The notes under the pieces: model-generated
Told to the model about the DNA's origin: nothing
What the model saw: only the letters and a program-made list of their open reading frames with translations
Databases searched by the model: none
In this document: positions 4,101-64,000 of the stretch, piece by piece
How positions within the stretch are numbered: the stretch's first letter is position 1
Layout of the letters: every line of letters starts with the position of its first letter
Assembly (NCBI RefSeq): GCF_021155765.1
Contig: NC_060114.1
Coordinates: 12,181,001 to 12,245,000, forward strand
Direction: 5' to 3'
DNA: 64,000 bases
DNA from: Diprion similis
Lineage: Eukaryota; Arthropoda; Insecta; Hymenoptera; Diprionidae
Position numbers and translations under genes: made by a program

Positions 4101-7100
4101 AGTCGTTATCTTCGGAGTGTAAACAAGGGTTTGTCGACAGCGATTGAAAGTGATGGTGAAATACAATTGCAATGGGAGAAACGTAAAGTAAAGAGAGCGG
4201 AAAAAATCACTGAATGCTTTTTCTCCTTTTGACGATCCTCAGATCCTCCTGGTCAGCCTTACATCGAGGGCTACACGGAGGGTGAAACAGTGAGACGAGG
4301 ACAGCAGGTTGATCTGGTCTGCAGATCACGAGGCGGAAATCCCCCGGCGCAGGTTGTTTGGTTCAAAAACGACGAGCAAATTACAACGGCCTACCGTACC
4401 GAGGCTTCCTTTTCCGAAAACGTTCTTTCTTTCGAGGCAAAGGCGACAGATAACAAGGCGCGATTCACGTGCGAAGTATCAAACATCATGAGCGTCACAC
4501 CGCTCAAAGTCCACGTCGACTTGGCTGTTCTTTGTGAGTATCACGCGCCTTTCCCTTGTCTATATGTACATTTTTCTCCCTGGCAATTTTAGAATTTCAG
4601 CTGAGATATTTCTCACCGAAGAAGAGAGAGAGGGAAATTGAACTGCAAATATAAAAAATAATAATAATCATAAATTATACCCGAAAGGAAGTGAAAAAAA
4701 AATACCCTGGTTCAAACGTCCAGCACAATTCAAACGCGAAATTAATTAATAACACTCTGCAGAGCTTCGAGACGGAAAAGTTGGATACGATGCTGATTAA
4801 AGCTTATGAGAAGGGCGCTGTGAAAGTATTTTAAAGCCGTAGTGACGACGTTTTTCGAAAATTAACAGGCCGAAGTGATTCTCCAAAAACTCGAAGGACT
4901 CATTAGTTTACGCTGATAAAAAATTTTCCTCTTTGGGTTCATTATTTTACATTTCCCTCTGTATCTCTAATTTTTGATGATAATGTTTCCTTTCTTTATG
5001 GTTACCAGTTGCTCCAACCGGGGCGATAATCACGGGCCCAACGGAGGCGAAGGCAGGTGAAAGGGTGCAAATAACTTGTACGACGGAAAATTCAAATCCT
5101 CCAGCTGATATAAAGTGGGTCGTGGCTGGCAGAAACTTTCGCAACAGTACTTCAAGAACGAATCTTGCGAGCCAGGGTGGTTGGATAACTACGTCGGACA
5201 TAACGTTCAACATAAACCCGGAAGTTCGAAGTATCGTCGTACTTTGTCACGCGCTAAACAACAAATTGGCCGAAAATGTCGTTGGCACGCACACCATCAA
5301 CGTCATTTGTAAGGAACTTGTAAAATGATACTCATCAACGTCAGCAATTTCATAATCGTCTCATCCAATTTTTCGAGTAGTACAAAAATATGTCTCATAA
5401 ATGTACAAGCCAGTCATAGGTATTCAATTCCAGTTACGTGATATTTTAGCGAAAACGTGATCAAAACAATAATTGAATTTCTTATCGATCGTAATCAAAA
5501 GTTCCTCTCGCAAGTGGTGTTTCACTTTTTCTTTTCTTTTTACCCATTACGAAACAGATCCTCCTTCCGATATCGTCGTCACTGGTTACGAGGACGGCGA
5601 GAGTATCGATGCTGGCACAGTTCTGAAACTGTCATGCACAGCAACGGCCGGAAATCCTCCGGCTACCTTAACGTGGTACAAGAATGACAAAAAGGTAAAG
5701 AAAAGATGTTATAAAAACGACTTTTTATTTTTTTTGCTCACTTCCCTGGTTCGACACAGATAAAATCTTATATCGATGAAGAATGACTTACAATTAACAT
5801 GATGCCTTAGGGATTCGTAGATTATAATCAGCTAATCTTTTACGGTTAAATTATACGTGTATTAAATTAAGTTGCAAAGAAATTTCACGCAAGTTGTTGA
5901 GCTTTTACTTGGTCGCGTTAAATTGATATACACCCAAAGACACGATAAGAAATCAATTTTAACAATAATTAGTACGACTTTCTTCGATTGGCGTCTGTCC
6001 AATAACGATGTTCGATACCAAATAAATACATTTTTGTATGTATTGATGTCATACCAACAATTTTTGCGATCCATCGACTTTATCCCTTCGTCTAACACGT
6101 TTTCAGGTCAATGGGAACATGCGGACACGCGACCACGCAGTTTCCAGCGAGCTGACAATGCTTGTTAACGCTTCCGATAACAATGCGAGGATCAGATGCG
6201 AGGCCACAAATTCAGCTGTCGAAATACCGCTTATTGGACTGTTACAGCTCAAAGTCAACTGTGAGTTTCAAAAATAGTCTTTAATTTTGTACTTATACAC
6301 CCAATGTACTTCATCAGTCCATCGTTAAACTGGTCAACCTTTCCTTGGATAATATTGCCCCTTTTCGGGTACAGTTTCAATTCTGTTCCAAAATTTAAAC
6401 AGGACATTTTTAAATAAGCTGCAGACAGAATAATCCTGGGTATCTATAAAATTTTTAAATGTTCATAGATGATTTTCCAAAAAAATTCTGTACTTACTCA
6501 ATTTTCCAGTAAATTTATCATGAATTTTTGTGAATAATTCGCAAAAATTTGTTTGTTCACGTTTAGATTTCTAAATAATATGTTTAAGGGGAGAATAAAC
6601 TTTCTTTTATGTACCAGCAATTACGATTTTTCTTTTTTACCTCTTCGTGCAGTTCCTCCGGATCAAGTCAAGATCACTCGAGTACCAAACGAATTTCGGG
6701 CCGGTGAATTAGGGCAGCTTATTTGCGAGTCGAGCAGCAGTAATCCACCCGCTGAAATGTCATGGTGGAAACAGGGCATTCCTGTTCCTGAAACTCATAA
6801 CGATACAAAACCTGGACTGCACGGCGGATACCTTTCCTCGGTCGAACTGTCGCTGCAGTTGAACGAAAAAATGAACGGTGAGGTATACACTTGTCAGGCG
6901 AGGAACGCTGCCCTGCAGAGAGCTGTACACGATGCCACGACACTTACAATCGCATGTAAGTTGAGTAAAGTATAGAAGATATATCTTCTCCTGGGTGTTA
7001 TTCGAACTTCAATGTCACAGCTCACAATCACAGTTTTCATGTTTGACCTTGGAAGTTTTATTCCATTCGATTGCAAGATTATTATATATTCACCTATTTC

Positions 7101-8562
7101 TCGTACAGATAAACCAATCTTTTCACCGCTGGACCCGAACGAACTCGTCGGAATGGAGGGTGAACCCTTTGTCATATCTGTGTTAGCAACTGGAAATCCT
7201 ACAGCGATAACTTACACATGGACCAGATCTGGTTCGCCATTGAGTACAAGCAACAAGAGATTTACGGCTCGTGGTTCGACTCTGAATATAACTAAACTGG
7301 AACGTCGCGATGCTGGAACTTACAGATGCGAGGCAATAAACTCAGAGGGATCATCTACATACGACCTAAATCTGACTGTACAATGTAAGAATTAACCTTT
7401 CTCTCTGACAAACCAAAGCGTTTATCATTATATTTCTTTCTCCTTGGCTCTGATTATTCTTGAATATAAATTCTCGTTCGACGTCTATCAACCCCGAATA
7501 TCTCTTTAGTTCCAGCCAAAATTATACGAACTTCTAAATCTGGGGTCGTGTATCCTCCCGATTCTGAGGCAAAGCTATGGTGCGAGGTTGACGGCAGTCC
7601 AATTGGTGACAGCTACATTACATGGTATAAAGTCGGGTCGAACGCCGATCTCAGCAGAAGATTCCTCACTTCTTTTACAAACAAAACTTCGTACCTTCAC
7701 ATCATGGAGCCAAGTCGCGAAGACATCGGTGAATATCAGTGTAACGTAAACAACGGAATCAGCAATGTGACATCGAGACCAATTCTGTTCGTCACAAATT
7801 GTGAGTTGCACGAGTATCTTTATACTGTCTCATAGATTTGGAATTTTGCAATACATTTACTTATTCTGATTCGTCTTTACAGTCAAACCTGAAATAGAAA
7901 GCTCACCATTGACCAGGAAAGCTGCAGCCAACAAGGGAGCCAAAGTTCAATTGACCTGCAAGGCAAGAGGTTCACCGCTGCCAAAATTCACGTGGACCTT
8001 CAGTGGGAGACAACTAATGCCCAATAGGACTGATAATAAATATGACATCGTTCAAACTGAGGTGAGTTAGAAGCAACACATACTTTCGGTTAGTAAGACT
8101 GAATCCCAGTTCGCAGACTCTACGTAAGTTTTTCAGAGATAGTGCTGTTTGAAGCATAACCAAGCTCTGAAATTATAAATGAAATATTTATTTTCCGAAG
8201 TAGATTGCAAAATTTAATAAGAATTTAAACCAGATTTCAAAAATTTTGGTCAAGTTTCAAAGAGAATTTTTTGACTGGGTTTTGCTTTTCACATTTGGAA
8301 CGTAGCAAAGCAAGTTTCAGAGTAAACATAAACTATTTCAGAACAATTGTATCTATTGAGCATCTAGAGATATTCAGAAAACCATTGAGTTTTAGTAAAA
8401 TTCTTAAGGTTTCTGTAAAACTTCACTATATTTCAGCTCACTCAGTTGTCCGCTCAATCAGTGATGACAATATACCAGGTGTCTTCGGGCGACTATGGTA
8501 AATACGAGTGCAAGGCACGTAACAAGGTAGGGAGTGTGATTGAGGAGGTGTTTTTGGACGTA
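1188..8562 (+). CDS. Ig-domain exon series (eight Ig domains) of the nephrin-like gene
   Basis: Each Ig domain shows the early Cys, the core Trp (for example TIVWYRG, QVVWFKN, TLTWYKN, EMSWWKQ) and a late YxC or FxC motif (DYTCEA, RFTCEV, EVYTCQA, TYRCEA, EYQCNV, KYECKA). Domain 1 is split between 1188-1376 and 2891-3070. Domains 2 and 3 are single exons (4243-4533, 5009-5308). Domain 4 is split (5558-5694 and 6107-6260). Domains 5 to 7 are single exons (6653-6955, 7109-7384, 7510-7800). Domain 8 is split (7883-8061 and the start of 8437-8857). In domain 6 (7109-7384) the usual first Cys is replaced: the strand reads PFVISVLATG, so the B-F disulphide is probably missing there. Several domains carry the GNPPA or SNPPA turn typical of nephrin-family Ig repeats. 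Introns above 300 bases here (1377-2890, 3071-4242, 4534-5008, 5695-6106, 6261-6652, 8062-8436) hold no exon I recognise. Confidence 0.87.
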
Positions 8563-11500
8563 ACATCACCGCCAGAACCACCCTCGGATCTCCGAGTCTA
8601 CAACGTTACCCACGATACAGTGGTTCTTGTATGGAGGAGGGGATTCGACGGAGGTCTTACAACTTCGCACCAAGTCAGGTGGAGACAAGCATTGGATTAC
8701 GAAGACAGATATCAATACATTGATGCTTCACCTGGGCAGGACCACGTCGTAATAACTGGGCTGAACCTGGGCACTTACTACGTATTCAGTATAAAGGCGA
8801 TCAATGCCAAGGGGCAGAGTGCCTTCCTCCCAGACCTGGTCAAAGTGCAAACGTTGCGTAAGTCACATCATACTTGTCACAAAATTGACAATAATATTAA
8901 AACACATCAACTCGATGGACAATTCTCCTTTTGTCTAATTCTAGTTAAAGGTATCTAGATACCAGTAGAGATTACAGTAACATTCCGTAGAATGACATTG
9001 AGTTTTACACTAAGAACTAGTACACGTGAATTCTCATCCAGGGCTCTTGGTGATAATGTAGAAATGATATTTAACGCTGCTTCCAAATTATATTATACCT
9101 ATTTTCAAAATGAGTAAAAATCATTACATACTTTCGTAAACGCTTATGTGGATAACCAACAGTATCAAACTTGTTCCAACTGAAAACTTAACATTAATCG
9201 TATCAAAATTCTCCTGCGGAATGCATGATCTTTTATGTCCTAACATCTCTGTAGCATGATATCAAATTGCAATCCGTTCGTGTAATGTATCTATTTATGT
9301 CTGTCGCTATCAAATAGTGCCGCTCAATGAACAATTCGAACGTATACCTGAGTCAGTAGACTAGATAGTGTGCACAGAGTAACAGTGTGATACCGCACAG
9401 AAAGCCTTTGCAAGAAGTAGATACTGATAGAAGTTTCATCGAATATCCATACCCATAAGTTTCTCATTTCGTCTTAAAACAGAGTTAGAAAAACCACCTC
9501 TTGTCTGCAACCTTTAAATTCTGTTCATTGTGAAAATATTCGAAAGAAGAAAAGACACATTTCTGCTCCAGCGGTGTAATACTGATACTCCGCACGTCAA
9601 CTCCTGATCAGTGTACCGTTGGAAGTAATAAAAATATACGATAAAAAATAAAATGCAAAGACGCGAATTGAAGAACGAAAAGAATGACTATTGCTGCAGA
9701 AATATCAGAGACTAACAATTAGTAGGGTAATTGTAAGGCTGTGCATGTGTAACGTCTGGGTGACGGGGGATGGGTTGGGTTGCAGGGGAAGCACCTCCAA
9801 CCGAGTTGACGGCGAGCGAGTCTAGCTCTTCCTACATCATCGTCATTATCATCGCTGTATCCGCCTGTGCTTGTCTACTCATTGTCACGCCAATAGTCTA
9901 TGCTACGTTAGCATCAAAAAAGAAGGCGAATCGCTCTGGTAAATATTACTATTCACGTTATCCTTCAATTTTTTTTCTCCTGTAGGACCGAATAATGTGG
10001 AGAGTCTCCCAGACGTTCTTGTGGTGCAAGGAGACATCCCGATGAATTATATCTATGCCATCGCAGCCACACTCGTCGTCTTTTTTCTTATTAATCTATT
10101 CATCATGTTGTGGTACATTGTGCGAAAGCGAAACAAGGATCGTAAGTTTATAAATTTACTCCATGTGAGATCGAATGTAATTTAGGGCTCGTTTAAACCG
10201 TGAGAATATTTTTTTGGGTGGGTATTATCCAAAAGCGGAGGAAAAAATGGTTACATGATACCAGTTAATTCAAGAATACAACTTCCTGATTTTTCACTTT
10301 ATAGTTACTATTCAAGACCACGTTTGCCTCAATGGTCAATTATTCGTCGTTAGTGACAATTATCGCTACGAAGAATTGAGACTATTTTGTTTGTTCTTCA
10401 AGATTCTAGTCACTACTAAATATCGATAGTATTTACAAGGAACATAATGGGCGAAGAAATATGACTGATTCCAAGAACAGGATTGAAATTCATTTATTAA
10501 TACTTACTTGTATTGTCATTTGTGCAGGCATAAACAAATCTCAAACTGCGGATATGTACGCCCCATCTACTGTCAATGGAGACACGATGACTGGCGAGTT
10601 GAGTTCAGTTTCGGATGAGAAGAGTGACGTTAACTTCGATGCAAACGATTACGTGGTCAGTGCGATCAGTCAGTATGTTCTTAGTAACAAGTAATTGCAG
10701 AGGGTAGGTTTGAGTTCTTTTAACCCTTTTTCTTTCTACATTTTTCTTTCCATACGTATGCTTGCACGATCTGGATACTTCAACCACTTACTTTTTTTTC
10801 ACTTTTACTTTTATTGTATACTTTCGATTATGAACGTAACTAATTTTAGTCTACCTAACATTCGATTTATTTCTATTCTGTTCTCACGTTAGATAGCTCA
10901 AATTTTTTTTACACTTAACGTGATCTCAGTTTTCAAAGCAATTCATTGCCTTTGAATCGAACCGTCCAATATTTATTATAATTCGTAATTACATTATTAT
11001 CAATAACATCAATCAAGTCTACCTTTATTCCTTTTTTCTTGTAAACACATCAAAGTTATTATTGATTTTTCACCTCTTGGGTTATACTCTCTCTTGGAAA
11101 AAGTAATTCTGTTCAAGATTTAAAAGCCGAACAGGTAGGTTGTGGGGTGCTTTAATTCTTGAAACTCCTTACGTTTTCTTCCTTACCTGCTTATACGTAT
11201 GTCGAATTAAAAAGTAATTGGAGCTAGTATTAATAAAACTTGAAAACTGCATTTTCTGCCGTTTGAAGATGTATGTTGAAAACTTTAAACGCTGTATAGC
11301 GTGTAAATATCCATGCCCTCTTGCATTACTTTTTAACAGTGACAGTGATCATGTATCTGTGTAGCAAGTTGAGACTAATATTCTGAACGCAAGTTGCTGG
11401 GAAAAATATTTCTTTCAACTTGTTGTACAGGGTTATTATTATTGCATTTAACTTATCTTTTAGATACGTTTCAATCATCAACTGCAAACACTTTTATTGC

Positions 11501-14067
11501 TTAGATCACGGCTGTGAAACTTTAATCTAATTTTCCCAAAAGATTGAGAAAAAAACTAAATAAAGTAATATAGTCACAAAAAAAATTGAACTTATAACGT
11601 TTGTGCATTACAATGCGATAAAGCAGGACGAGGGGCGAAAGACGGCGGCGAGTACGTACCTAATAGATCAAACTATACAAGACTTTGGGAAAAACAGCCT
11701 GGAAATGCAGGTGCATCACCATAATCAAGGGACTCTGGGTAGGCGAAGCAATCTGCACGCTCACAGCGGCATGCTGGATATGGACTCTCCTCCTCAGCGC
11801 ACAACGGCTAGTGGGACTCTCTCGGGTGCGTCATCTTCAACAGCTACTCGACTCGAGGCTCTCAATAGGTGCCGATACCTCTGAAGTTTGTCGCTCTTGG
11901 TGTCTTCTCGTTTTACTGGCCAGACTCAAGTCAATTGAACTCATAATCAGTAAAGCACAGTCAATTACACTGAACACTTTTGTTTAACATGTCAAAACGG
12001 AGCAAAACTTGCCAAAAAGTCGACTAAAAAATCATTTATATAAAAACATTCTTAGCGGTAAAAGTGTAAAATTTTCAAACGAATTCTAACATCATGAAAC
12101 TTGCGTTAATCACCTCTGTAAATTATTCACCTACTATCAACTCACTACATCATCTCACGCTCATCGTCAATTCATAAGAAATTTATTAACGACAGAAAAC
12201 TTTTCGACACATTTTCGTCCTTTCTTTCACTATTTAACCGGTGTGATTGGGATATCCGTTATCAATATTAAAACATGTCGGTAATAATCATATTTGGAAG
12301 AAGAATAATAGAGTACACAATATTCTGCAATGTATATACACATGCCGATGTTTTATGAAGAGAAGAATCCTTCTTATATATCTATACATTTGACAAAACT
12401 GCGTGTTATAAATTTTCAGTGCATATGATCATTCGCAACGCATGCTTTGTACATTCACATTCAGTTATATTACACTTACACATTATACCTGTGCGTATAT
12501 ACATGAATATTAACACGCGTATGATATACACATTATTTTTGCTGCATGATCAGTGATAACTTGAATCGGCTTTTTTATTACAATATATTCTAGTCTGGCC
12601 AGTTCTTTGCGCCGTTCCCCCTCCCGAATGCATTGTCGATTAATGTTTCAAAGATTTTTAAGCAATCTCATTACAACACACCGTACCTACACAAGCACAT
12701 CAACACACGTCTTATACTTAATCACTTATATCCAATTACATATTGGCTTAAACCAATCAAGCAGCTTGCTTTTTTCAATATACTTATACATTATTATACA
12801 ATCGTAAAAGTCATGGCGTAGAAATAGATGTAAACGAGATGGCTGCAGAGAGCTCTCATGCTTGCGAGGATTGTGCATGTTCTTGTAATTGTTTTAAGCT
12901 CACCTGCAATCAATGCTGACATTTAAGTCCCGTTAACGATTATCGATTGAATCCTGTCTGCAAATCGTATTTCACAACGGGAACTACTCTGATGGAAATA
13001 TTCATGCAAAATATTTATCGCAAAGCTTTTCCTTTTTCATATGAACTTCTACAAACATTAGATTTAATCTCTCACAAAATTTTGCGATTTTCACATCAGT
13101 TAAAAAAAAATCGTAAGTCAACGGCTAATTCTACCATTGTGGGACAAAATTTATCCGCTGATTCGAATTTTTTCAAAGTGTATTAAGAACTTTCAAAAGT
13201 GTAGTAAGTTTGACGAGAAATTTGTGAAAAATCAAACACTTTTCAAAATTTTTCAAATAAACATTTTCATTAGGGATATTATCTACATGAAAAAATTTAA
13301 CCGTTATACAATTTCGTTGCGAGAGGAATATTCAAATCTCAATTAGAAATTCAGACTTTCGTGACAAACTTTTATGAATTTTTTTGTTTGCAGATAAAAT
13401 TTCGATAAACGTTGCTAGATCTAATCCAGACTTGAAAATTATGGCTAAATACACAGCCTAAAAATACAATTATAATAGCAATGTGGGATGATTTAAAACA
13501 ATTGAACAATTTATTGCCGTCATTATCATATACGTACAGCACAATAAATCTGTATTTTTATATTATACCTATGAGGAATAGATGAAAGGAAAAGGGAACG
13601 AAAAAAGGGGAAAAGTACGAAATATCTTTTGACATTTTCAGTCTCAAAATCGAGTTACATCGGGAATCCGAGTCCAGCCCCACCGGCCGATGCGAGCTTC
13701 TACAGTGTGGAGATGGACAATGGCCGATATTTGGGGTATGAAGGGAATCCCAGCCCGGCCCCAGTTATCGGGGACCCGGGCCTGAGCGGCTATTATCCTA
13801 CAATGGCAACAATGGGGCATCATGCACCTTCGCACATGGCGGGGGGAGGAACGCTGACCCGGAACAGGACGCTCCCTCGCCCAGTCCCCCCCCCAGACGT
13901 CACTGTTATGACTGCAGGCGCAAAGTCCCCAGTACCCCCCTCGGTACCCCCCCCCGCCAGCTACGTTTGCACGTGCGGCCCCCGTCCCCGCACATTCCCA
14001 CGGGCACCCACTGTCTACTTTCACCTCAACCCCAGTCTATTCGGACATTGACGGACATCTTGTCTGA
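1188..14067 (+). CDS. sns/hbs-like: Nephrin-like immunoglobulin adhesion receptor (Sns/Hibris family), 5'-partial, multi-exon
   Basis: A type I membrane adhesion protein. In insects, family members act at cell-cell contacts in myoblast fusion, nephrocyte diaphragms and eye patterning, binding Kirre/Rst-type Ig partners. Exons by splice site and phase: 1188-1376, 2891-3070, 4243-4533, 5009-5308, 5558-5694, 6107-6260, 6653-6955, 7109-7384, 7510-7800, 7883-8061, 8437-8857, then 9786-9938 or 9986-10141, then 10528-10655, 11627-11825, 13642-14051 (or 14067 in another frame). All phases join without a break. Most junctions are phase 1, as usual for Ig exons. Domain order is eight Ig, FN3, one membrane span, then a tail rich in Ser, Pro and Gly. 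The signal peptide and any earlier Ig domains lie upstream of the window. I cannot tell Sns from Hibris. Family assignment is strong; exact ends of the tail exons are less certain. Confidence 0.88.
3944..3993. repeat. 50-bp near-perfect palindrome in a nephrin-like intron
   Basis: Two 25-nt arms (3944-3968 and 3969-3993) are complementary with no spacer and a single mismatch; the centre reads AAAGTGCGCACTTT. It lies in the intron 3071-4242. No target duplication or longer element is visible around it. Confidence 0.92.
8563..8857 (+). CDS. Fibronectin type III domain of the nephrin-like gene
   Basis: The second part of exon 8437-8857 begins with a Pro-rich linker (SPPEPPSDL) and encodes a full FN3 fold. 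It shows the VVLVWRR strand Trp, the central VRWRQ strand, ITGLNLGTYYVFSIKAIN (the Leu-x-x-Tyr-x-x-x-Ile-x-Ala core) and a closing VQTL. One membrane-proximal FN3 domain is the family architecture. The exon ends in phase 1 with a GTAAGT donor, so it can splice to either of the two downstream transmembrane exons. Confidence 0.88.
9786..9938 (+). CDS. Transmembrane exon A of the nephrin-like gene (alternative)
   Basis: A 153-nt exon that starts and ends in phase 1. It encodes a short Ser/Thr/Glu stalk, then a hydrophobic run beginning SYIIVIIIAVSACACLLIVT, and a basic stop-transfer patch (SKKKANR). The acceptor is preceded by a G-rich tract instead of a pyrimidine tract and so looks weak. The donor is GTAAAT. 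Only 47 nt separate it from exon B. The 928-bp intron before it shows no other exon. Confidence 0.75.
9986..10141 (+). CDS. Transmembrane exon B of the nephrin-like gene (alternative)
   Basis: A 156-nt exon with the same phase 1/1 boundaries as exon A. It encodes a different stalk (NNVESLPDVLVVQGD), a separate hydrophobic segment (AIAATLVVFFLINLFIMLWY) and a basic patch (VRKRNKD). Its acceptor has a strong pyrimidine tract (TTTTTTTTCTCCTGTAG) and its donor is GTAAGT. Joining the FN3 exon directly to it keeps the frame (R-P-N-N). It duplicates the role of exon A rather than extending it, so I read it as an alternative membrane anchor. Confidence 0.75.
10528..10655 (+). CDS. Cytoplasmic exon 1 of the nephrin-like gene
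   Basis: The acceptor TTTGTGCAG is followed by a phase-1 entry compatible with both membrane exons: codon 1 becomes Gly after A or Arg after B. The peptide contains ADMYAPSTVNGDTMTGE and an acidic Ser-rich stretch ending FDANDYV. The Tyr in DMYAP is a candidate phosphosite, by analogy with the nephrin tail. I place the donor at GTCAGT (10656), which gives phase 0. A GTATGT 17 nt later (10673) is an alternative but would give phase 2, which does not fit the next exon. Confidence 0.68.
11627..11825 (+). CDS. Cytoplasmic exon 2 of the nephrin-like gene
   Basis: It enters in phase 0 after AAAGCAG and reads DEGRKTAASTYLID, then a His/Asn/Gln-rich segment and MDSPPQRTTASGTLS. The donor GTGCGT at 11826 gives phase 1, which fits the last exon. 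If that donor is skipped, the frame continues (GASSSTATRLEALN) to a stop at 11882-11884, giving a shorter tail. The intron before it (10656-11626) and the one after (11826-13641) are AT-rich and show no further exon. Confidence 0.65.
13642..14067 (+). CDS. Last coding exon of the nephrin-like gene, with an apparent frame problem
   Basis: A GC-rich exon standing out in AT-rich surroundings. It encodes KSSYIGNPSPAPPAD, a second GNPSPAP copy, and Pro runs with YVCTCGPRP. As read, the frame continues into an Arg/Pro/Phe stretch and stops at 14049-14051. Shifting by one base within the CCCCGTCCCC run (about 13979-13988) instead opens SHGHPLSTFTSTPVYSDID followed by GHLV and a stop at 14065-14067. 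That version looks like a genuine C terminus: it is Ser/Thr-rich, has a Tyr in YSDID and ends in a PDZ-ligand-like HLV, which I recall also ends vertebrate nephrin. Either the assembly carries one extra C or the allele is truncated and altered. Confidence 0.72.
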
Positions 14068-24172: not shown

Positions 24173-25397
24173 TTAGACTTTAAGGGCAGCTTTGGGAGAC
24201 CAGTGATGGAATCTGGCAGGACCGGCAGGATATGAGGAAGGATGCGCCCATTTGTTGCCCCTGTGACCCATGAAGGGTGGGGGGGATGGGCCCCCCATAA
24301 ATGGGGGTGGAGGCATCACATTGTACCATGGCTGGTTCATTGGGTGCGGACCATAACCCATGCTGAAGGAGTGGTTGAACCATGAACGATTTCTATTGAC
24401 GTGAGGCCTTGGGCTATGCAAATTACGTCTCCTACCTGCACTACTGCTAGAATGTTGCTGATTTTGATTTACGGCGCTCAGAGGCTTTGACTTGCTATGG
24501 TGTTCGCTGACGCTTTGGACCGCATGAGACTTCTGAAAATAAATGAAAACTTAGAGTTTGGTAACGTGACTGTAGGCCATAGAATCTTCTACAAAAGGAA
24601 TTCAATGATAAATTTATGGTAATTTGAATGATTTGAATACTACAGAAAGTTGCATAAAAAGCCTAGCTGTTTTGTGATAGGTAAATTTCTGATAAATATT
24701 CTTTTTTCTTTGTATTCAAAGGGGGTGAAGAGCGCCTGACGACTTTTATTCGAAGGGTTCAGTGCCAGAGTAGCCTAAACCACATTGTCGATAGGGCAAT
24801 TTTAAATTGCTTAGGATTGTAAAATGAACCTTATCGACAATGTGGGTTAGGCTATTGTGGCACTGAACTCTTCATTCGTACAATTCAAATATGTAGAGTC
24901 GCCTTAAAAACTACCGTTAGCAATTTCTGTCCAGATGTGCTGATGATGACCTGTGTTTTTGTAGACTCTTCGATGTGCCTGGGTTCCTTTTCCGCGTTAT
25001 GGCCACCAAGCTGAAGCATAGGAACAGCATTTTCCTTGTCGTCGAAAGAGGCGAGGGTGCAATAGGAACCTTTGCTTTCCCCAAAGCGACAGCATACTTC
25101 GTTCGGATCAACCCAAAGCGTTAGTTCAACAGGCAGGGACAAATCCTCATACTTAACACCTGCAGCTCGAGCTGCACTCTCGAGGGTTTTGTCCCTCCGA
25201 CTATGACCATTGACCCGGATGCAGCGGTAGCCCTGACCCTTGAACGGCTTGTCAGGAAACCAATGGTTCTTGAATCGTTCTATCAGAAGCTCGACCAGAC
25301 GTCTTTGAAAGCATTTCAGCTGATCAGGACTAAATTTTTCGCTTTTTTCTATCAGCTTTACTAAGAACAAAACTGCCGCTGTGATCTCGTTGTGCAT
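24173..25397 (-). CDS. BTG3: BTG3-like antiproliferative protein (BTG/Tob family)
   Basis: BTG/Tob proteins bind the CAF1 (CNOT7/8) deadenylase of the CCR4-NOT complex and restrain proliferation by speeding mRNA turnover. There are two coding exons: 25397-24915 (161 codons, from ATG) and 24532-24173 (119 codons plus TAA). They join in phase 0 across a 382-bp intron with donor GTAGTT and acceptor TTTTCAG, giving 280 residues. The N-terminal BTG domain (about 1-115) has box A around residues 42-63 (FKNHWFPDKP, then YRCIRVN) and box B around 86-106 (LSLPVELTLWVDPNEVCCRF). The start MHNEITAAV, the EVCCRFGE and ASFDDKEN segments and a Pro-rich C terminus (PPPPFMGGPSPPPFMG) point to the BTG3 branch rather than BTG1/2 or Tob. 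The intron holds a long hairpin (24752-24873). The 5' UTR and promoter lie somewhere to the right, unplaced. Confidence 0.88.
24752..24873. repeat. Long inverted repeat (hairpin) in the BTG3-like intron
   Basis: The left arm 24752-24795 (44 nt) pairs with the right arm 24829-24873 (45 nt) around a 33-nt loop. By eye about 39 positions pair, with one bulged base. Part of the arm reads CCACATTGTCGATAGG on the left and CCTTATCGACAATGTGG on the right. The loop contains a small self-complementary GCAATTTTAAATTGC. It could be a small fold-back transposon or a small-RNA precursor; I see no flanking target duplication. Confidence 0.85.
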
Positions 25398-28005
25398 ATC
25401 GTGCGTTGTTTACGTATCTAATCAAGCTGGAACTCGTAAACAAGGAACTCTTAGAGTATCCAACAAGAGTATCTCCGAAAATAGGTGTATTGTTGCTCGA
25501 AAAAGACAATGTGGTGCACATAGAGCTCTCCTCCTCCACCTTATCAGCAGATTTTGATGTTAGTTTCTTGGTGTTCGTTGCGCAAGAGTAATCGATCGTT
25601 GTAATGATGTCTCGCAGAATCAATTCGCTATTTTTTGATCACGGATGTGCTTCGTTTGAAGAAAGGCTGAAACATTGATATCATCATTTCCCATGCAGAC
25701 TTTAATTTCAGGGCTACATAAAAAAAAACTGACGTCGAAATAACTCCATGAGTACAGTTAGTGATTTTTCATGAAATCAAAATTAAAAAACAAAAAAAAC
25801 CATAGAACGGTGCTCGGTCAATGAACCGAAGATTATTTTAGTATAGATTGTTTTCATCTCGCATTTTAAGGTGTCTTTAAAATAATTGAAAATAGAAAAT
25901 ATTATTGACAAAGAATACTTGGAAAATGAAACGTTCAACGAGAAAAATGAGCAACAAAAAACTTGGAAAATTCATAATTTTCAAGATCGCCGGATACAAG
26001 CAGATAACATGATATAGAGAAATCAACAATTGAGTGTTGCAATCATATCAGTCATGCGTTATCTCTAATTATCAGTTCCACATGAACACTTCACATAATC
26101 ATCAGTTGATTGTTTGTTTGAATGTTCAAATGGCAATGCTGTTCGGAACACAAGCAACAGAAGAAAACTTGACAATAACATTTAAAAAATTGCCTTAAAT
26201 AGAAGAGCCTGCTAAACTTATATGTCAAATGAAAACACTAGCAGCTGGTCTACTTCTTAAGTCAAAGCATCTAAATATCACTAAGAAGTAGTCAGTGCAA
26301 AATATGTATTTCTATATAATATAATACGGATGCGCCATTCCTAGAACTACGGCTGCCGCACTGTCCAGGTGCAATAGGTGAAATCGATCAATCATGCAAC
26401 ATATTCCAAATTAATCTATGCCTGAACAAAGAAGCAAACTTGCTGCTGCAGCCTTCGAATGTACATTCATTTGGATTTTGTTTGTCAATTTAGTGGAAAA
26501 GATAGCATACAAAAACAAATAGGAGTTGAAGATTCGACGGAAAACCAATGAGCAATTTCATTCAGGTTCGTTAAGTATTCCTGAGTAGTCATAGAAAGAT
26601 TTCAATCAGAATTTTTTATTAAATAGTATTGTCGAGTATGTTATTATCTGTGAAATATTGCGAGAACTACCGTTTACCATAAGGTGAATGCGATATTATT
26701 ACGACGCTTGAACAATGGTTTGAAAACATATTTAATATTTAGCTATAAAATTTGTTGATTTATCAAAATGCAGAATGACATTTGGTGAATATAATTGACT
26801 AAATTATCATTTCTATATATAAGATGTGCCTAACAGTTACAGTAAAGTGGTAACGCACAACAATATGCTGTTGTTTATTCCAACTTTTTTTGCACCTTTT
26901 TTTTCTATATCAATCAATGGTAATTAGGTTATGGTAGGCATATTGGCATAGGTTAGGTAATTTGCACGTAGGCAGCTCGCGGTATTTGCATAACATACGC
27001 GCAATAAAATGACCCGAGATAACGGCTGTTTTTAATATTGGATCGAATTTCGTCAAGATGATTATAAATCTGTAAAACTAATGAGACGGTGGAATTTGTG
27101 CCAGCTCATTCTTGTACATACATATGACTACGTAGAAAGCTCGCAAGTAGACGCGTATGTAGAAATACATGTGTACCAGGATGTGCCTTGCTCGATTCTT
27201 TATGCGAGCTCGACGTTAAATGGATGGGATGGAAAAGTACACACTGCGTATTTACCTAGATTCTCTTCTATTTTCTTCGAAATTTCGGCCCTTTTTTAAC
27301 CCGGCAACGCGATTACAAGCTAAATGAGGTTCTAGTAATATGGCTTACGGTTAACTGACGGAGACCCTCTGGTTTTAGATGAAATCAGTACCTCACTACT
27401 GGCTTTAAATAAACGCACTGGCTCGACCTAACACGTGTTACGTCGACCCTACTCCACTGAATATAGAATACTTATCAAGACCGCCTACTGATACTTGAAA
27501 AATGAAATAACATCAATGTGCGCCGCAGTCAAGTTGAGGGCATGCTCACTAGACAGCGCTATTTTCGTGCCAATTGCCTGCATCCGATATTGGGTTGGCG
27601 AACATTTGAAAGAAATCATGTTCACAGATTTCAAATCACGGTTTTATTCACCATCCCAGATTTTTCTGTTTTGATAATTTTTTTTTGCAAACACATTGTC
27701 CTATAAACATTGATCAATATATTGCCAATGTATCCCGTGAAATTCATCACTGTTTTCCATTTTAAATGCGCACAAACGCTGGCACAATTGAACCATTTGT
27801 GCTCCTAATTGATGCTTTTTGAAACTGCATCTAGTCCAATGAATTGCCTGCGGTCAGGCGTTTTCTCTATTTGGCAGTGTCAAACTTGCTAATTTGTGTT
27901 AAGTTTGACAGCTCGGTGTTTGACGCTACTGCTGTGCATATATACTACGGAATTAAAATTGGTCCTGTAACCAGAACTGTCAGATTCGTTAGAAACGACA
28001 AAACC
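25398..28005. other. Divergent intergenic region between BTG3-like (-) and DYNC2I2 (+)
   Basis: The two genes are transcribed away from each other, so this 2.6 kb should hold both promoters and 5' UTRs. No conserved coding exon is seen. A minus-strand open frame (25623-25330) overlaps the BTG3-like start in another frame and is Ser/Thr-rich without family resemblance, so it is more likely 5' UTR. A 10-bp stem (CTACTTCTTA / TAAGAAGTAG) lies near 26250-26281. Confidence 0.6.
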
Positions 28006-31160: not shown

Positions 31161-31617
31161 AAGAACAGCGTTGTAACAATAGCTGGATATATGCGGAGGA
31201 AATTTTTGGTTTTTTGCATCCTACTTCTTATCAGTTGCTCAATCCATATTCAATTCCTCTCGGAATACTACGTCGGAATAATGCACTTTTGATCCGTTAT
31301 TCGCAGCGTATTCTGCCTGCGCTCAATTGATTTCTCTCGCAAAATTACGTAGGAGTGGTGCCTTCAAGAATTATTTGCAGCACTTTTCAGAGTAGTCGAA
31401 ATTTTCGCATAAAATCCAAAGGGGTTAGCCTTACGTTTTTTTGCGATTTTTGAAGCCGAAAATTTATGTTCTCCGAATTGATTTGTATGACCGTTTCTTG
31501 GCTACTTGGAACCGCAAGAAATCAAAAAACACGTTGAAAAATGCGTAGGACCAACAGCAGAGAAATAGCGATGAAAATCTGCAGTTTTTTGGCTATAACT
31601 TTTGATCCGTTGCTCGG

Positions 31618-34166
31618 GGCCTATTGGGACTGCGCTCAATCGATTTCTCTCGCAAAATTACGTCGGAATAAGGCCCTAACGAATTGATTGCAGCACTTTT
31701 CAAAGTCATCGAAATTTTTGCCAAAAATCCAAAGGGGTTAGCATTACTTTTTTTGCGATTTTTGGAGCCGAAAATTTCTAGTCTCCGAATTGATTTGTAT
31801 GACCGTTTCTTGGCTAATTGGGACCCCAGGGACTCGAAAAACACATTAAAAAAAGCGTAGGACCAACAGCAGTGGAATTGCGATAAAAATCTGCAGTTTA
31901 TTGGCTATAACTTTTGATCCGTTTCTCGGAGCCTATCGGGACTGCGCTCAATCAGTTTCTCTCGCAAAATTACGTCGGAATAGGGCCGTAACGAATTAAT
32001 TGCGGCACTTTTCAAAGTCATCGAAATTTTTGCCAAACATCCAAAGGGGTTAGCCTTACTTTTTTTGCGATTTTTAGAGCGGAAAATTTCTGGTCTCCGA
32101 ATTGGTTTGTATGACCGTTTCTAGGCCAATTGGGACCCCAGGAACTCGAAAAACACATTAAAAAAAGCGTAGGACCATCAACAGAGAAACGGCGATGGAA
32201 ATCTGCAGTTTTTTAGCTGTAACTTTCGATCCGTTGCTCGGAGCCTATTGGGACTGCGCTCAATCGATTTCTCTCGCAAAATTCCGTCGAAATAGGGCCC
32301 TCACAAATTAATTGCAGCACTTTTCAAAGTCATCGAAATTTTTGCCAAAAATCCAAAGGGGTTAGCCTTACTGTTTTTGCGATTTTTGGAGCCGAAAAAT
32401 TTCTGGTCTCCGAATAGGTTTGTATGACCGTTTCTAGGCTAATTGGGACCCCAGGAACTCGAAAAACACATTAAAAAAAGCGTAGGACCAACAGCGGAGA
32501 AATGACGATGAAAATCTGCAGTTTTTAGGCTGTAACTTTTGATCCGTTGCTCGGAGCCTATTGGGACTGCGCTTAATCGATTTCTCTCGCAAAATTACGT
32601 CGGAATAGGGCCCTAACGAATTAATTGCAGCACTTTCCAAAGTCATCGAAATTTTTGCCAAAAATCCAAAGGGGTTAGCCTTACTTTTTTTGCGATTTTT
32701 GGAGCCGAAAATTTCTGGTCTCAAAATTGGTTTGTATGACCGTTTCTAGGCTAATTGGGACCCCCGGAACTCGAAAAACACATTAAAAAAAGCGTAGGAC
32801 CAACAGCGGAGGAATGACGATGAAAATCTGCAGTTTTTTGGCTGTAACTTTTGATCCGTTGCTCGGAGCCTATTGGGACTGCGCTCAATCGATTTCTCTC
32901 GCAAAATTACGTCGGAATAAGGCCCTAACGAATTGATTGCAGCACTTTTCAAAGTCATCGAAATTTTTGCCAAAAATCCAAAGGGGTTAGCATTACTTTT
33001 TTTGCGATTTTTGGAGCCGAAAATTTCTAGTCTCCGAATTGATTTGTATGACCGTTTCTTGGCTAATTGGGACCCCAGGGACTCGAAAAACACATTAAAA
33101 AAAGCGTAGGACCAACAGCAGTGGAATTGCGATAAAAATCTGCAGTTTATTGGCTATAACTTTTGATCCGTTTCTCGGAGCCTATCGGGACTGCGCTCAA
33201 TCAGTTTCTCTCGCAAAATTACGTCGGAATAGGGCCGTAACGAATTAATTGCGGCACTTTTCAAAGTCATCGAAATTTTTGCCAAACATCCAAAGGGGTT
33301 AGCCTTACTTTTTTTGCGATTTTTAGAGCGGAAAATTTCTGGTCTCCGAATTGGTTTGTATGACCGTTTCTAGGCCAATTGGGACCCCAGGAACTCGAAA
33401 AACACATTAAAAAAAGCGTAGGACCATCAACAGAGAAACGGCGATGGAAATCTGCAGTTTTTTAGCTGTAACTTTCGATCCGTTGCTCGGAGCCTATTGG
33501 GACTGCGCTCAATCGATTTCTCTCGCAAAATTCCGTCGAAATAGGGCCCTCACAAATTAATTGCAGCACTTTTCGAAGTCATCGAAATTTTTGCCAAAAA
33601 TCCAAAGGGGTTAGCCTTACTGTTTTTGCGATTTTTGGAGCCGAAAAATTTCTGGTCTCCGAATAGGTTTGTATGACCGTTTCTAGGCTAATTGGGACCC
33701 CAGGAACTCGAAAAACACATTAAAAAAAGCGTAGGACCAACAGCGGAGAAATGACGATGAAAATCTGCAGTTTTTAGGCTGTAACTTTTGATCCGTTGCT
33801 CGGAGCCTATTGGGACTGCGCTTAATCGATTTCTCTCGCAAAATTACGTCGGAATAGGGCCCTAACGAATTAATTGCAGCACTTTCCAAAGTCATCGAAA
33901 TTTTTGCCAAAAATCCAAAGGGGTTAGCCTTACTTTTTTTGCGATTTTTGGAGCCGAAAATTTCTGGTCTCAAAATTGGTTTGTATGACCGTTTCTAGGC
34001 TAATTGGGACCCCCGGAACTCGAAAAACACATTAAAAAAAGCGTAGGACCAACAGCGGAGGAATGACGATGAAAATCTGCAGTTTTTTGGCTGTAACTTT
34101 TGATCCGTTGCTCGGAGCCTATTGGGACTGCGCTCAATCGATTTCTCTCGCAAAATTACGTCGGAA
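31618..34166. repeat. Duplicated four-monomer block (period 1249 bp) at the left of the array
   Basis: Positions 31618-32917 match 32867-34166 at an offset of 1249 bp. Private variants are shared, such as CAGTGGAATTGCGATAAAAA, GCCAAACATCC and GGCGATGGAAATC. I saw one difference between the copies (CAAAG at 32326 against CGAAG at 33575). Confidence 0.85.
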
Positions 34167-36802
34167 TAGGGCCCTAACGAATTAATTGCAGCACTTTTCA
34201 AAGTCATCGAAATTTTTGCCAAAAATCCAAAGGGGTTAGCCTTACTTTTTTTGCGATTTTTGGAGCCGAAAATTTCTGGTCTCCGGAATGGTTTGTATGA
34301 CCGTTTCTAGGCTAATTGGGACCTCAGGAACTCGAAAAACACATTAAAAAAAGCGTAGGACCAACAGCGGAGAAATGACGATGAAAATCTGCAGTTTTTT
34401 CGCTGTAACTTTTGATCCGTTGCTCGGAGCCTATTGGGACTGCGCTTAATCGATTTCTCTCGCAAAATTTTGTCGGAATAGGGCCCTAACGAATTAATTG
34501 CAGCACTTTTCAAAGTCATCGAAATTTCTGCCAAAAATCCAAAGGGGTTAGCCTTACTTTTTTGCGATTTTTGGAGCCGAAAATTTCTGGTCTCCGAATT
34601 GGTTTGTATGACCGTTCCTAGGCTAATTGGGACCCCAGGAACTCGAAAAACACATTAAAAAAAGCGTAGGACCAACAGCGGAGAAATGACGATGAAAATC
34701 TGCAGTTTTTTCGCTGTAACTTTTGATCCGTTGCTCGAAGCCTATTGGGACTGCGCTCAATCGATTTCTCTCGCAAAATTACGTCGGAATAGGGCCCCAA
34801 CGAAATAATTGCAGCACTTTTCAAAGTCATCGAAATTTCTGCCAAAAATCCAAAGGGGTTAGCCTTACTTTTTTTGCGATTTTTGAAGCCGAAAATTTCT
34901 GGTCTCCGAACTGGTTTGTATGACCGTTTCTAGGCTAATTGGGACCCCAGGAACTCGAAAAACACATTAAAAAAAGCGTAGGACCAACAGCGGAGAAATG
35001 ACGATGAAAATCTGCAGTTTTTCGGCTGTAACTTTTGATCCGTTGCTCGGAGCCTATTGGGACTGCGCTCAATCGATTTCTCTCGCAAAATTACGTCGGA
35101 ATAGGGTCCTCACGAATTAATTGCAGCACTTTTCAAAGTCATCGAAATTTTTGCCAAAAATCCAAAGGGGTTAGCCTTACTGTTTTTGCGATTTTTGGAG
35201 CTGAAAATTTCTGGTCTCCGAATTGGTTTGTATGACCGTTCCTAGGCTAATTGGGACCCCAGGAACTCGAAAAACACATTTGAAAGAGCGTAGGACCAAC
35301 AGCGGAGAAATGACGATGAAAATCTGCAGTTTTTTCGCTGTAACTTTCGATCCGTTGCTCGAAGCCTATTGGGACTGCGCTCAATCGATTTCTCTCGCAA
35401 AATTACGTCGGAATAGGGCCCCAACGAAATAATTGCAGCACTTTTCAAAGTCATCGAAATTTCTGCCAAAAATCCAAAGGGGTTAGCCTTACTTTTTTTG
35501 CGATTTTTGGAGCCGAAAATTTCTGGTCTCCGAACTGGTTTGTATGACCGTTTCTAGGCTGATTGGGACCCCAGGAACTCGGAAAACACATTAAAAAAAG
35601 CGTAGGACCAACAGCGGAGAAATGACGATGAAAATCTGCAGTTTTTCGGCTGTAACTTCTGATCCGTTGCTCGGAGCCTATTGGGACTGCGCTCAATCGA
35701 TTTCTCTCGCAAAATTACGTCGGAATAGGGCCCTAACGAATTAATTGCAGCACTTTTCAAAGTAATCGAAATTTTTGCCAAAAATCCAAAGGGGTTAGCC
35801 TTACTTTTTTTGCGATTTTTGGAGCCGAAAATTTCTGGTCTCCGAATTGGTTTGTATGACCGTTTCTAGGCTAATTGGGACCCCAGGAACTCGAAAAACA
35901 CATTAAAAAAAGCGTAGGACCAACAGCGGAGAAATGACGATGAAAATCTGCAGTTTTTTGGCTGTAACTTTTGATCCGTTGCGCGGAGCCTGTTGGGACC
36001 GCGCTTAATCGATTTCTCTCGCAAAATTACGTCGGAATAGGGCCCTAACGAATCAATTGCAGCACTTTTCAAAGTCATCGAAATTTTTGCCAAAAATCCA
36101 AAGGGGTTAGCCTTACTTTTGTTGCGATTTTTGGAGCCGAAAATTTCTGGTCTCCGAATTGGTTTGTATGACCGTTTCTAGGCTAATTGGGACCCCAGGA
36201 ACTCGAAAAACACATTAAAAAAAGCGTAGGACCAACAGCGGAGAAATGACGATGAAAATCTGCAGTTTTTTGGCTGTAACTTTTGATCCGTTGCGCGGAG
36301 CCTATTGGGACTGCGCTTAATCGATTTCTCTCGCAAAATTACGTCGGAATAGGGCCCTAACGAATCAATTGCAGCACTTTTCAAAGTCATCGAAATTTTT
36401 GCCAAAAATCCAAAGGGGTTAGCCTTACTTTTTTTGCGATTTTTGGAGCCGAAAATTTCTGGTCTCCGAATTGGTTTGTATGACCGTTTCTAGGCTAATT
36501 GGGACCCCAGGAACTCGGAAAACACATTAAAAAAAGCGTAAGACCAACAGCGGAGAAATGACGATGAAAATCTGCAGTTTTTTGGCTGTAACTTTTGATC
36601 CGTTGCTCGATGCCTATTGGGACTGCGCTCAATCGATTTCTCTCGCAAAATTACGTCGGAATAGGGCCCTCACAAATTAATTGCGGCACTTTTCAAAGTC
36701 ATCGAAATTTTTGCCAAAAATCCGAAGGGGTTAGCCTTACTGTTTTTGCGATTTTTGGAGCTGAAAATTTCTGGTCTCCGAAGTGGTTTGTATGACCGTT
36801 TC

Positions 36803-39800: not shown

Positions 39801-41660
39801 TTGCAGCACTTTTCAAAGTCATCGAAATTTTTGCCAAAAATCCAAAGGGGTTAGCCTTACTGTTTTTGCGATTTTTGGAGCTGAAAATTTCTGGTCTCCG
39901 AAGTGGTTTGTATGACCGTTCCTAGGCTAATTGGGACCCCAGGAACTCGAAAAACACATTACAAAAAGCGTAGGACCAACAGCGGAGAAATGACGATGAA
40001 AATCTGCAGTTTTTTCGCTGTAACTTTTGATCCGTTGCTCGAAGCCTATTGGGACTGCGCTCGATCGATTTCTCTCGCAAAATTACGTCGGAATAGGGCC
40101 CCAACGAAATAATTGCAGCACTTTTCAAAGTCATCGAAATTTCTGCCAAAAATCCAAAGGGGTTAGCCTTACTTTTTTTGCGATTTTTGAAGCCGAAAAT
40201 TTCTGGTCCCCGAACTGGTTTGTATGACCGTTTCTAGGCTAATTGGGACCCCAGGAACTCGAAAAACACATTGAAAAAAGCGTAGGACCAACAGCGGAGA
40301 AATGACGATGAAAATCTGCAGTTTTTCGGCTGTAACTTTTGATCCGTTGCTCGGAGCCTATTGGGACTGCGCTCAATCGATTTCTCTCGCAAAATTACGT
40401 CGGAATAGGGTCCTAACGAATTATTTGCAGCACTTTCCAAAGTAATCGAAATTTTTGCAAAAAATCCAAAGGGGTTAGCCTTCCTTTTTTTGCGATTTTT
40501 GGAGCTGAAAATTTCTGGTCTCCGAATTGGTTTGTATGACCGTTTCTAGGCTAATTGGGACCCCAGGAACTCGAAAAACACATTAAAAAAAGCGTAGGAC
40601 CAACAGCGGAGAAATGACGATGAAAATCTGCAGTTTTTAGGCTGTAACTTTTGATCCGTTGCTCGGAGCCTATTGGGACTGCGCTCAATCGATTTCTCTC
40701 GCAAAATTACGTCGGAATAGGGCCCTCACAAATTAATTGCAGCACTTTTCGAAGTCATCGAAATTTTTGCCAAAAATCCGAAGGGGTTAGCCTTACTGTT
40801 TTTGCGATTTTTGGAGCTGAAAATTTCTGGTTTCCGAAGTGGTTTGTATGACCGTTTCTAGGCTAAATGGGACCCCAGGAACTCGAAAAACACATTAAAA
40901 AAAGCGTAGGACCAACAGCGGAGAAATGACGATGAAAATCTGCAGTTTTTTGGCTGTAACTTTTGATCCGTTGCTCGGAGCCTATTGGGACTGCGCTCAA
41001 TCGATTTCTCTCGCAAAATTACGTCGGAATAGGGTCCTCACGAATTAATTGCAGCACTTTTCAAAGTCATCGAAATTTTTGCCAAAAATCCAAAGGGGTT
41101 AGCCTTACTGTTTTTGCGATTTTTGGAGCTGAAAATTTCTGGTCTCCGAATTGGTTTGTATGACCGTTCCTAGGCTAATTGGGACCCCAGGAACTCGAAA
41201 AACACATTTGAAAGAGCGTAGGACCAACAGCGGAGAAATGACGATGAAAATCTGCAGTTTTTTCGCTGTAACTTTCGATCCGTTGCTCGAAGCCTATTGG
41301 GACTGCGCTCAATCGATTTCTCTCGCAAAATTACGTCGGAATAGGGCCCCAACGAAATAATTGCAGCACTTTTCAAAGTCATCGAAATTTCTGCCAAAAA
41401 TCCGAAGGGGTTAGCCTTACTTTTTTTGCGATTTTTGGAGCCGAAAATTTCTGGTCTCCGAACTGGTTTGTATGACCGTTTCTAGGCTAATTGGGACCCC
41501 AGGAACTCGAAAAACACATTAAAAAAAGCGTAGGACCAACAGCGGAGAAATGACGATGAAAATCTGCAGTTTTTCGGCTGTAACTTTTGATCCGTTGCTC
41601 GGAGCCTATTGGGACTGCGCTCAATCGATTTCTCTCGCAAAATTACGTCGGAATAGGGTC
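36803..41660. repeat. Duplicated nine-monomer block (offset 2808 bp) in the array
   Basis: Positions about 36803-38850 match 39611-41658 at an offset of 2808 bp (9 x 312). Shared private variants include GCTCGATCGATTTC, GGTCCCCGAACTGG, AGCCTTCCTTTT, GGTTTCCGAAG and GGCTAAATGGG. A few differences are visible, for example GAATTAATT against GAATTTATT. Confidence 0.85.
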
Positions 41661-44600: not shown

Positions 44601-44723
44601 TCTAGGCTAATTGGGACCCCAGGAACTCGGAAAACACATTAAAAAAAGCGTAAGACCAACAGCGGAGAAATGACGATGAAAATCTGCAGTTTTTTGGCTG
44701 TAACTTTTGATCCGTTGCTCGAT

Positions 44724-63724: not shown

Positions 63725-64000
63725 GTAGGTAGGAAAACATTATAACATTGAAATGCTCAAAACAGCTTGAAAAAGAAGTGGTTCACATCGAACAGAACTC
63801 TGAGCTATGCACTTTTTTCATCACTAATCACTTGTTGTATAAAATACACTTCCAGAAGTTGATTTCAATGTGAAATTTATTTACAATGACAGAGTAAATT
63901 ATGGAACCACTCTGTTCCAAAATCCAAGTTTACATATTCCTCAACTTGTACTACTTATTATCAATGCCATTACTTAAGAAGCTACTAATAGGATTTCAAG

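What the first reader, a model, noticed from the sequence alone, without database searches (positions are those of the whole stretch)
9786..10141. Two tandem transmembrane exons, same phase, separated by only 47 bp: probable mutually exclusive membrane anchors
Seen: exons A and B each encode a stalk, one hydrophobic span and a basic stop-transfer patch; both are phase 1/1 and both splice in frame between FN3 and the first tail exon. Established: an intron too short to hold donor and branch point cannot be spliced, a known cause of mutually exclusive exons. Inference: a 47-bp gap prevents A-B joining, and using both would flip the tail across the membrane. The isoforms would share ectodomain and tail but differ in stalk and membrane span. 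The A acceptor is weak (G-rich) and the B acceptor strong, which suggests regulated use of A.
Basis: partly seen in the sequence, partly recalled or inferred. Interest (0 to 1): 0.72.

Follow-up and report, generated by a model that had tools for sequence, protein, structure and literature searches.

The report
Swappable membrane anchors in insect nephrin
An apparently insect gene for a nephrin-like cell-adhesion receptor carries two alternative membrane-anchor segments packed so closely that only one should fit into any message, an arrangement otherwise known from the brain-wiring gene Dscam1.

Summary
Exon A (9786-9938, 153 nt) and exon B (9986-10141, 156 nt) lie 47 nt apart. Both are phase 1/1 and join in frame to the FN3 exon and first tail exon of a nephrin/SYG-2-like gene. 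Each encodes a stalk, one hydrophobic span and a basic patch. A mechanical scan of 313,772 own-genome bases, both strands, found such exons at three places only: A/B, the paired TM exons of this genome's own Dscam1, and one stray. The Dscam1 pair is 35 nt apart; the other introns modelled in the two genes are at least 81 nt. So the Dscam1 exon-17 layout recurs in a second receptor gene, with two differences. A and B show no detectable homology, whereas 17.1 and 17.2 do. Acceptor A has a G-quadruplex motif (9758-9779) where a pyrimidine tract should be. Best reading: mutually exclusive anchors enforced by steric hindrance, B the default and A regulated. The layout is shown; isoform use is inferred. 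No transcript data, insect relatives or in-genome paralogue were available.

The parts
8437..8857 (+). constant exon: second half of the last Ig domain plus the FN3 domain; donor TGC|GTAAGT, phase 1
   Evidence: Pfam on the Ig+FN3 stretch: Ig_3 3e-17, fn3 3.4e-9
9758..9779 (+). G-quadruplex motif lying where the polypyrimidine tract of the exon A acceptor should be; a fifth G run (9785-9788) straddles the splice junction
   Evidence: (one of 2 plus-strand motifs in 64 kb; first-order Markov mean 0.06)
9786..9938 (+). exon A: Ser-rich stalk, transmembrane span YIIVIIIAVSACACLLIVT..., basic patch KKKANR; phase 1/1, 153 nt
9939..9985 (+). 47-nt inter-exon intron; holds the pyrimidine-rich acceptor of B and branch-point candidates 17, 22 and 29 nt from the A donor; retention gives an in-frame TAG at the B acceptor
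9986..10141 (+). exon B: acidic stalk, aromatic-rich transmembrane span, basic patch VRKRNK; phase 1/1, 156 nt
10528..10655 (+). first constant tail exon T1 (acceptor clear; donor GTG|GTCAGT tentative)
11627..11825 (+). tail exon T2 (tentative boundaries; poor acceptor)
13642..14065 (+). tail exon T3 (acceptor clear; end set at a stop codon, not a splice site; frame towards the C terminus unresolved in a C-homopolymer-rich stretch)

Best explanation
This is a nephrin/Sns/SYG-2-type adhesion receptor gene with two alternative, mutually exclusive transmembrane exons, working like exon 17 of Dscam1. Shown by sequence: both exons are complete type I membrane anchors that splice in frame into the same slot, and the 47-nt space between them leaves at most about 32 nt between the A donor and a B branch point placed 15 nt or more from its acceptor. 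Inferred: U1 at the A donor and U2 at the B branch point cannot assemble on the same 47 nt, so A and B are not joined and each message takes one of them. Inferred: B is the default, with 22 pyrimidines in 27 acceptor positions. A is used only where a factor overcomes an acceptor that has a G-quadruplex-forming tract instead of pyrimidines. Inferred: the two receptors share ectodomain and tail but differ in stalk and membrane span (A rich in small, Cys and beta-branched residues; B rich in aromatics). As for Dscam[TM1] and Dscam[TM2], this would sort them to different membrane compartments or change shedding.
For: Frames, phases and lengths. The mechanical scan picks out A/B and Dscam1 17.1/17.2, plus one stray, in 313,772 bases on both strands; null 0 of 1500. 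Dscam1 control in the same genome: TM exons L023 6163-6345 and 6381-6581, gap 35 nt, phase 1; the 13 other introns that the scan proposed there (30-400 nt searched) are 81-273 nt. Branch-point geometry: three best candidates 17, 22, 29 nt from the donor in nephrin and 16, 19, 24 nt in Dscam1. Strict short-intron survey (30-160 nt searched): 32 putative introns, shortest 62 nt. Published steric limit of about 50 nt (PMC7969005, passages; PMC5740500, passages). Published TM-dependent sorting of Dscam isoforms (PMC6379420, passages).
Against: No transcript evidence. Acceptor A has the fewest pyrimidines and most G of 29 compared (9 and 16 in 27 positions; next 12 and 6). A and B are not detectably homologous (score 18, null mean 23), unlike typical mutually exclusive exons. 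Codon statistics of A are only weakly coding-like. The looser intron survey lists 8 candidates under 60 nt, one of them the Dscam1 gap, against 6 and 8 in the two decoys, so rare very short introns are not excluded. The branch-point score is crude: it also puts the three best candidates 14-26 nt from the donor in an ordinary 81-nt Dscam1 intron, so the case rests on length. Folding of the region is not unusual (z +0.98).
Confidence: 0.72

Rival explanations
1. Exon B is the only working membrane anchor. Exon A is a relic or a rarely used cryptic exon that still happens to read open.
For: Acceptor A lacks a pyrimidine tract and scores lowest of 16 nephrin acceptors (-0.2), though one Dscam1 acceptor scores the same. 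Codon support for A is weak.
Against: A keeps an open frame, both phases, a donor, a stalk, a hydrophobic span and a basic stop-transfer patch. Chance rate is about 0.002 for this intron. GC and GC3 are coding-like. A decayed relic should have lost frame or splice sites.
Confidence: 0.16
2. Exon A is used without its donor: FN3-A with the 47-nt intron retained gives a receptor with anchor A and only 15 further residues, ending at the TAG of the B acceptor. A would be a switch that removes the signalling tail.
For: Retention stays open until an in-frame TAG exactly at the B acceptor. The intron is probably too short to splice.
Against: No AATAAA or ATTAAA lies between 9939 and 11205, so the message would carry downstream introns or exons and could be a decay target. 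The A donor (score 3.0) is better than that of B (2.3) and would be unnecessary.
Confidence: 0.05
3. Both exons are cassettes that can be joined or both skipped, giving a double-pass form with the tail outside or a soluble form without a membrane span.
For: Both combinations stay in frame, so nothing in the reading frame forbids them.
Against: 47 nt leaves at most 32 nt between donor and a branch point 15 nt from the acceptor. A double-pass form would put the tail on the wrong side. The strong B acceptor argues against routine skipping.
Confidence: 0.05
4. The layout is an assembly or annotation accident, such as a collapsed haplotype or a wrong gene model, and not a real pair.
For: Single genome; no second assembly could be compared.
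Against: A and B each match the genome once, at this place. They are unrelated in sequence, so neither is a mis-assembled copy of the other. The splice frames fit the same gene.
Confidence: 0.02

Closest known systems
Insect Dscam1 exon 17.1/17.2 (mutually exclusive transmembrane exons)
   Same: Two tandem exons each encoding a stalk, one TM span and a basic patch, phase 1/1, between FN3-type exons and the tail; gap too short to splice by the usual rule (35 nt in this genome's Dscam1, 47 nt here). Steric hindrance is in the title of Yue et al. 2013, seen only as a reference entry in PMC7969005.
   Different: Different gene family. Exons A and B are not detectably homologous while 17.1 and 17.2 are (85 against null mean 43). 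Here the upstream acceptor is G-rich with no pyrimidine run; in Dscam1 the upstream acceptor has a T-rich run beside the AG (score 3.6), although only 12 of its 27 positions are pyrimidines.
OGDH 4a/4b and other vertebrate mutually exclusive exons attributed to donor-to-branch-point distances under about 50 nt
   Same: Same physical rule: branch point too near the upstream donor (PMC7969005, PMC5740500; passages).
   Different: In OGDH the intervening intron is longer (118-131 nt in birds and mammals) with distant branch points, and the exons are duplicates.
Nephrin/Sns/Hibris/SYG-2 adhesion receptors
   Same: Ig array plus one FN3, one TM slot, long tail. Best PDB match of the first 319 residues is SYG-2 (4ofy, 4.1e-30).
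   Different: No alternative TM exon was reported in what I saw: the Drosophila Sns paper PMC9000958 holds no 'splice' and 'isoform' only in a reference (word search), and the rows shown by searches name none in title or abstract start.

Membership tests
Nephrin/Sns/Hibris/SYG-2 receptors | long array of Ig domains followed by a single FN3, then TM and tail | tested here: met
   8 Ig-type units and one FN3 read by eye from the exon model; Pfam run on 3 of the 8 Ig units and the FN3 confirmed them. The 5' end of the gene lies outside the window and was not recognised among open frames of 55 aa or more in the 10 kb upstream.
Nephrin/Sns/Hibris/SYG-2 receptors | sequence closest to the family among IgSF proteins | tested here: met
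   First 319 residues: SYG-2 best (4.1e-30), next titin 6.4e-24. With the whole 906-residue ectodomain titin ranks first (3.9e-42) and SYG-2 seventh (1.1e-28), so the call rests on the N-terminal Ig domains. No nephrin, Sns or Hibris chain is in the rows shown (60 of 220 and 60 of 80).
Dscam1-exon-17-type alternative TM exons | two tandem exons in the same phase, each a full membrane anchor, in the same protein slot | tested here: met
Dscam1-exon-17-type alternative TM exons | spacing too short for the two exons to be joined | tested here: met
   47 nt here against 35 nt in Dscam1 of the same genome; best branch-point candidates 17-29 nt from the donor. By length only; splicing itself was not assayed.
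Dscam1-exon-17-type alternative TM exons | the two exons are tandem duplicates | tested here: not met
   A-B local protein score 18, 947 of 1000 segment shuffles as high; DNA 304 of 500 shuffles as high
Dscam1-exon-17-type alternative TM exons | transcripts contain one or the other, never both | not testable with these tools
   no RNA data held
Dscam1 gene itself | gene carries the Dscam C-terminal domain PF12355 | tested here: not met
   the only over-cutoff PF12355 match of 3 in this genome is on contig C6, not in the window

The most novel reading that the evidence does not exclude
A nephrin-family receptor has independently evolved Dscam1-like swappable membrane anchors from two unrelated exons. 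The choice is set by an RNA G-quadruplex that replaces the pyrimidine tract of exon A and, in its lowest-energy short-range form, buries the splice-site AG itself. Resolving the quadruplex would switch the receptor from anchor B to anchor A.
Probability: 0.18. Interest if true: 0.72.

Novelty: new variant of a known kind. Interest (0 to 1): 0.52.

Why it matters
Swapping the membrane anchor while keeping ectodomain and tail is how Dscam1 sends isoforms to dendrites or axons (PMC6379420, passages). Finding the same design in a nephrin/Sns-type receptor would make anchor choice a reusable way to target or shed adhesion receptors in synapse matching, myoblast fusion or the nephrocyte filter. It is testable from RNA-seq by counting a handful of junctions. 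An acceptor with a G-quadruplex motif in place of its pyrimidine tract would also be a clean test case for structure-controlled exon choice.

Tried and rejected
Homologues: IMG/VR (no pattern match) and GTDB contigs (24 pattern matches, none confirmed) gave no relative, as expected for an animal gene. In the own genome exon A and exon B match only themselves, and one Ig exon matches only itself and another Ig exon of the same gene (only the best candidates are scored). The FN3 query's two weak extra hits (6.4e-5 and 1.6e-4) read by eye as titin/projectin-like (L002) and Lar-like (L003) (names recalled). So no paralogue was available for comparison.

A shared origin of A and B: rejected at protein and DNA level. 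Unusual RNA folding of 9700-10160: not supported (z +0.98, 81 of 100 shuffles fold at least as well). The G-quadruplex is favoured in short windows (-21.0 against -13.0 kcal/mol for 9740-9800; -34.6 against -30.4 for 9720-9830) but gives no gain in 9700-9985 (both -71.6), and 43 of 300 mononucleotide shuffles of the 61-nt window also fold with one, so its formation in the real transcript is open. The Markov expectation of 0.06 motifs per 64 kb is generous to significance: the real window has 2 on the plus and 3 on the minus strand. Premature polyadenylation after A or B: no signal between 9939 and 11205. Codon bias as proof of coding: too weak.

Intron-length survey by open frames: the strict setting gives 32 putative introns, shortest 62 nt (decoys 11 and 14); the looser one is at decoy level below 60 nt (8 against 6 and 8). 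First versions on less sequence agreed: strict 15, shortest 76 nt; relaxed settings near decoy level below 60 nt. In one search seven loci contained in the window or in other fetched stretches (L001-L007) were left out; L020 overlaps L023 by about 1.8 kb and was not left out.

Papers: Yue et al. 2013 on Dscam exon 17 is not held; only its reference entry was seen. PMC5312091 (Crumbs isoforms, passages) proved irrelevant because the TM is shared.

Full report
The gene. On the plus strand the window holds most of a nephrin-type adhesion receptor: eight Ig-type units and one FN3 in the exon model, then one membrane slot and at least three tail exons, whose boundaries are partly tentative. Pfam confirmed the 3 Ig units and the FN3 that were given to it. 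The first 319 residues match SYG-2 best among solved structures (4.1e-30). With the whole ectodomain general Ig proteins rank higher, titin first and SYG-2 seventh. The own genome (269 Mb, 60 contigs) shows no second copy of exon A, exon B or the tested Ig exon.

The pair. Exon A is 9786-9938 and exon B 9986-10141, 47 nt apart. Both are phase 1/1 and multiples of three. FN3-A-tail and FN3-B-tail read through, as do A+B and skipping both. Each peptide has an acidic stalk (net -3), a 19-residue span of mean hydropathy 2.88 (A) or 2.53 (B), and a basic patch (net +4, +3), which is a type I anchor by the usual positive-inside rule (recalled).

Chance. A scan for open phase-1/1 exons of 100-220 nt with a CAG or TAG acceptor, a fair donor, a hydrophobic span and a following basic patch was run on 313,772 own-genome bases, both strands. 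It returned A, B with a nested variant, Dscam1 17.1, 17.2 with a nested variant, and one stray in L015. With a stricter donor cut-off (2.2 instead of 1.5) it found only A, B and nested B in the window and nothing in 1500 random 1.3-kb sequences. The criteria were shaped on A and B, and I lowered the donor cut-off knowing that the 17.2 donor scores 1.7; at the stricter value 17.2 drops out while A, B, 17.1 and the stray remain. GC of A is 0.50 against 0.36 and 0.28 in its flanking introns. Codon evidence alone is weak.

The in-genome control. A Dscam_C search led to Dscam1 on contig C6. The stretch upstream (L023) holds TM exons at 6163-6345 and 6381-6581, phase 1, separated by 35 nt, while the 13 other introns of 30-400 nt proposed by the same scan there are 81-273 nt (the one at 657-831 may be spurious). 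In the nephrin gene the other 14 introns of the model are 82-1816 nt. A strict survey by open frames over 304,169 bases, limited to 30-160 nt, gave 32 putative introns, the shortest 62 nt; the loose setting is at decoy level below 60 nt. Dscam1 exon 17 is described in print as a mutually exclusive transmembrane pair (PMC3364881, passages) and as present in two copies in each beetle examined (PMC8042237, passage). Its control is attributed to steric hindrance plus RNA structure (Yue et al. 2013, reference entry only), and an older paper proposed competing stems (PMC1431710, passages).

Why A and B should not be joined. The zone without AG upstream of the B acceptor runs from 9926 to 9983, so the B branch point lies in the 47-nt intron or in the last 13 nt of exon A. 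The best candidates are 17, 22 and 29 nt from the A donor; in Dscam1 they are 16, 19 and 24 nt. The score is crude: in an ordinary 81-nt Dscam1 intron it also prefers sites 14-26 nt from the donor, so the weight lies on the length itself. The limit quoted for simultaneous U1 and U2 assembly is about 50 nt (PMC7969005, passages), and 57 (9%) human clusters are listed as potential cases of this rule (PMC5740500, passage). These numbers come from vertebrates; the limit in this species was not measured.

How the choice may be made. Acceptor B has 22 pyrimidines in 27 positions. Acceptor A has 9, with 16 G; the next highest G count among 29 acceptors of the two genes is 6. The G tract (9758-9779) is a canonical four-run quadruplex motif, one of two on the plus strand in 64 kb where a first-order Markov model gives 0.06 on average. 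In a 61-nt window the best predicted quadruplex uses the G of the splice-site AG and the first two exon bases, and A is the only one of 16 nephrin acceptor windows predicted to form one. In 286 nt of context the prediction shows no gain, and 43 of 300 shuffles of the same G-rich window also form one, so this is a lead, not a result. The most likely scheme is B by default and A on demand.

What the isoforms may do. The anchors differ in kind: A has a Ser-rich stalk, two Cys and many small or beta-branched residues; B has an acidic stalk and an aromatic-rich span. Dscam[TM1] and Dscam[TM2] go to dendrites and axons, a difference linked to sphingolipids (PMC6379420, passages). A similar sorting or shedding role here is inference.

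Evolution. Dscam1 17.1 and 17.2 are recognisable duplicates (score 85, 0 of 1000 shuffles as high). A and B are not (score 18, 947 of 1000). Either they diverged beyond recognition or one arose separately. With no insect relatives in the held collections and no relatives of this genome offered, age and conservation are unknown.

Print. The rows shown by searches of the held open-access library (10 to 20 rows each, of up to 2,794 papers) name, by title and abstract start, no paper on alternative TM exons in Sns, Hibris or nephrin. Gene databases and closed-access papers were not searched, so existing isoform annotation in other insects remains possible.

Noticed in passing
10640-10694: T1 has a poor donor (GTG|GTCAGT at 10656); reading through it adds a short in-frame end VSAISQYVLSNK and a stop, so a short-tail isoform is possible.
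   Followed up: partly
13874-14065: Last tail exon is crowded with C homopolymers (three minus-strand G4 motifs); the frame that reads to TPVYSDIDGHLV* differs from the frame entering the exon, so either another intron or a homopolymer length error may be present.
   Followed up: partly
31285-49998: Satellite-like array of a 312-bp unit, about 60 copies at 95% match (search was cut at 50000); several long minus-strand open frames lie in it.
   Followed up: partly
24173-25409: Minus-strand open frames, of which 24885-25409 looks like a BTG/Tob family protein (recognised from memory).
   Followed up: no
56225-56566: Minus-strand open frame that looks like pyrroline-5-carboxylate reductase (recognised from memory).
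   Followed up: no
63086-63745: Plus-strand open frame that looks like a ZAD-type zinc-finger protein N terminus (recognised from memory).
   Followed up: no
L023 6163-6581: Dscam1 exons 17.1 and 17.2 of this genome are only 35 nt apart, and the acceptor of 17.2 ends in AAAACAG; a good natural test of the steric rule.
   Followed up: yes
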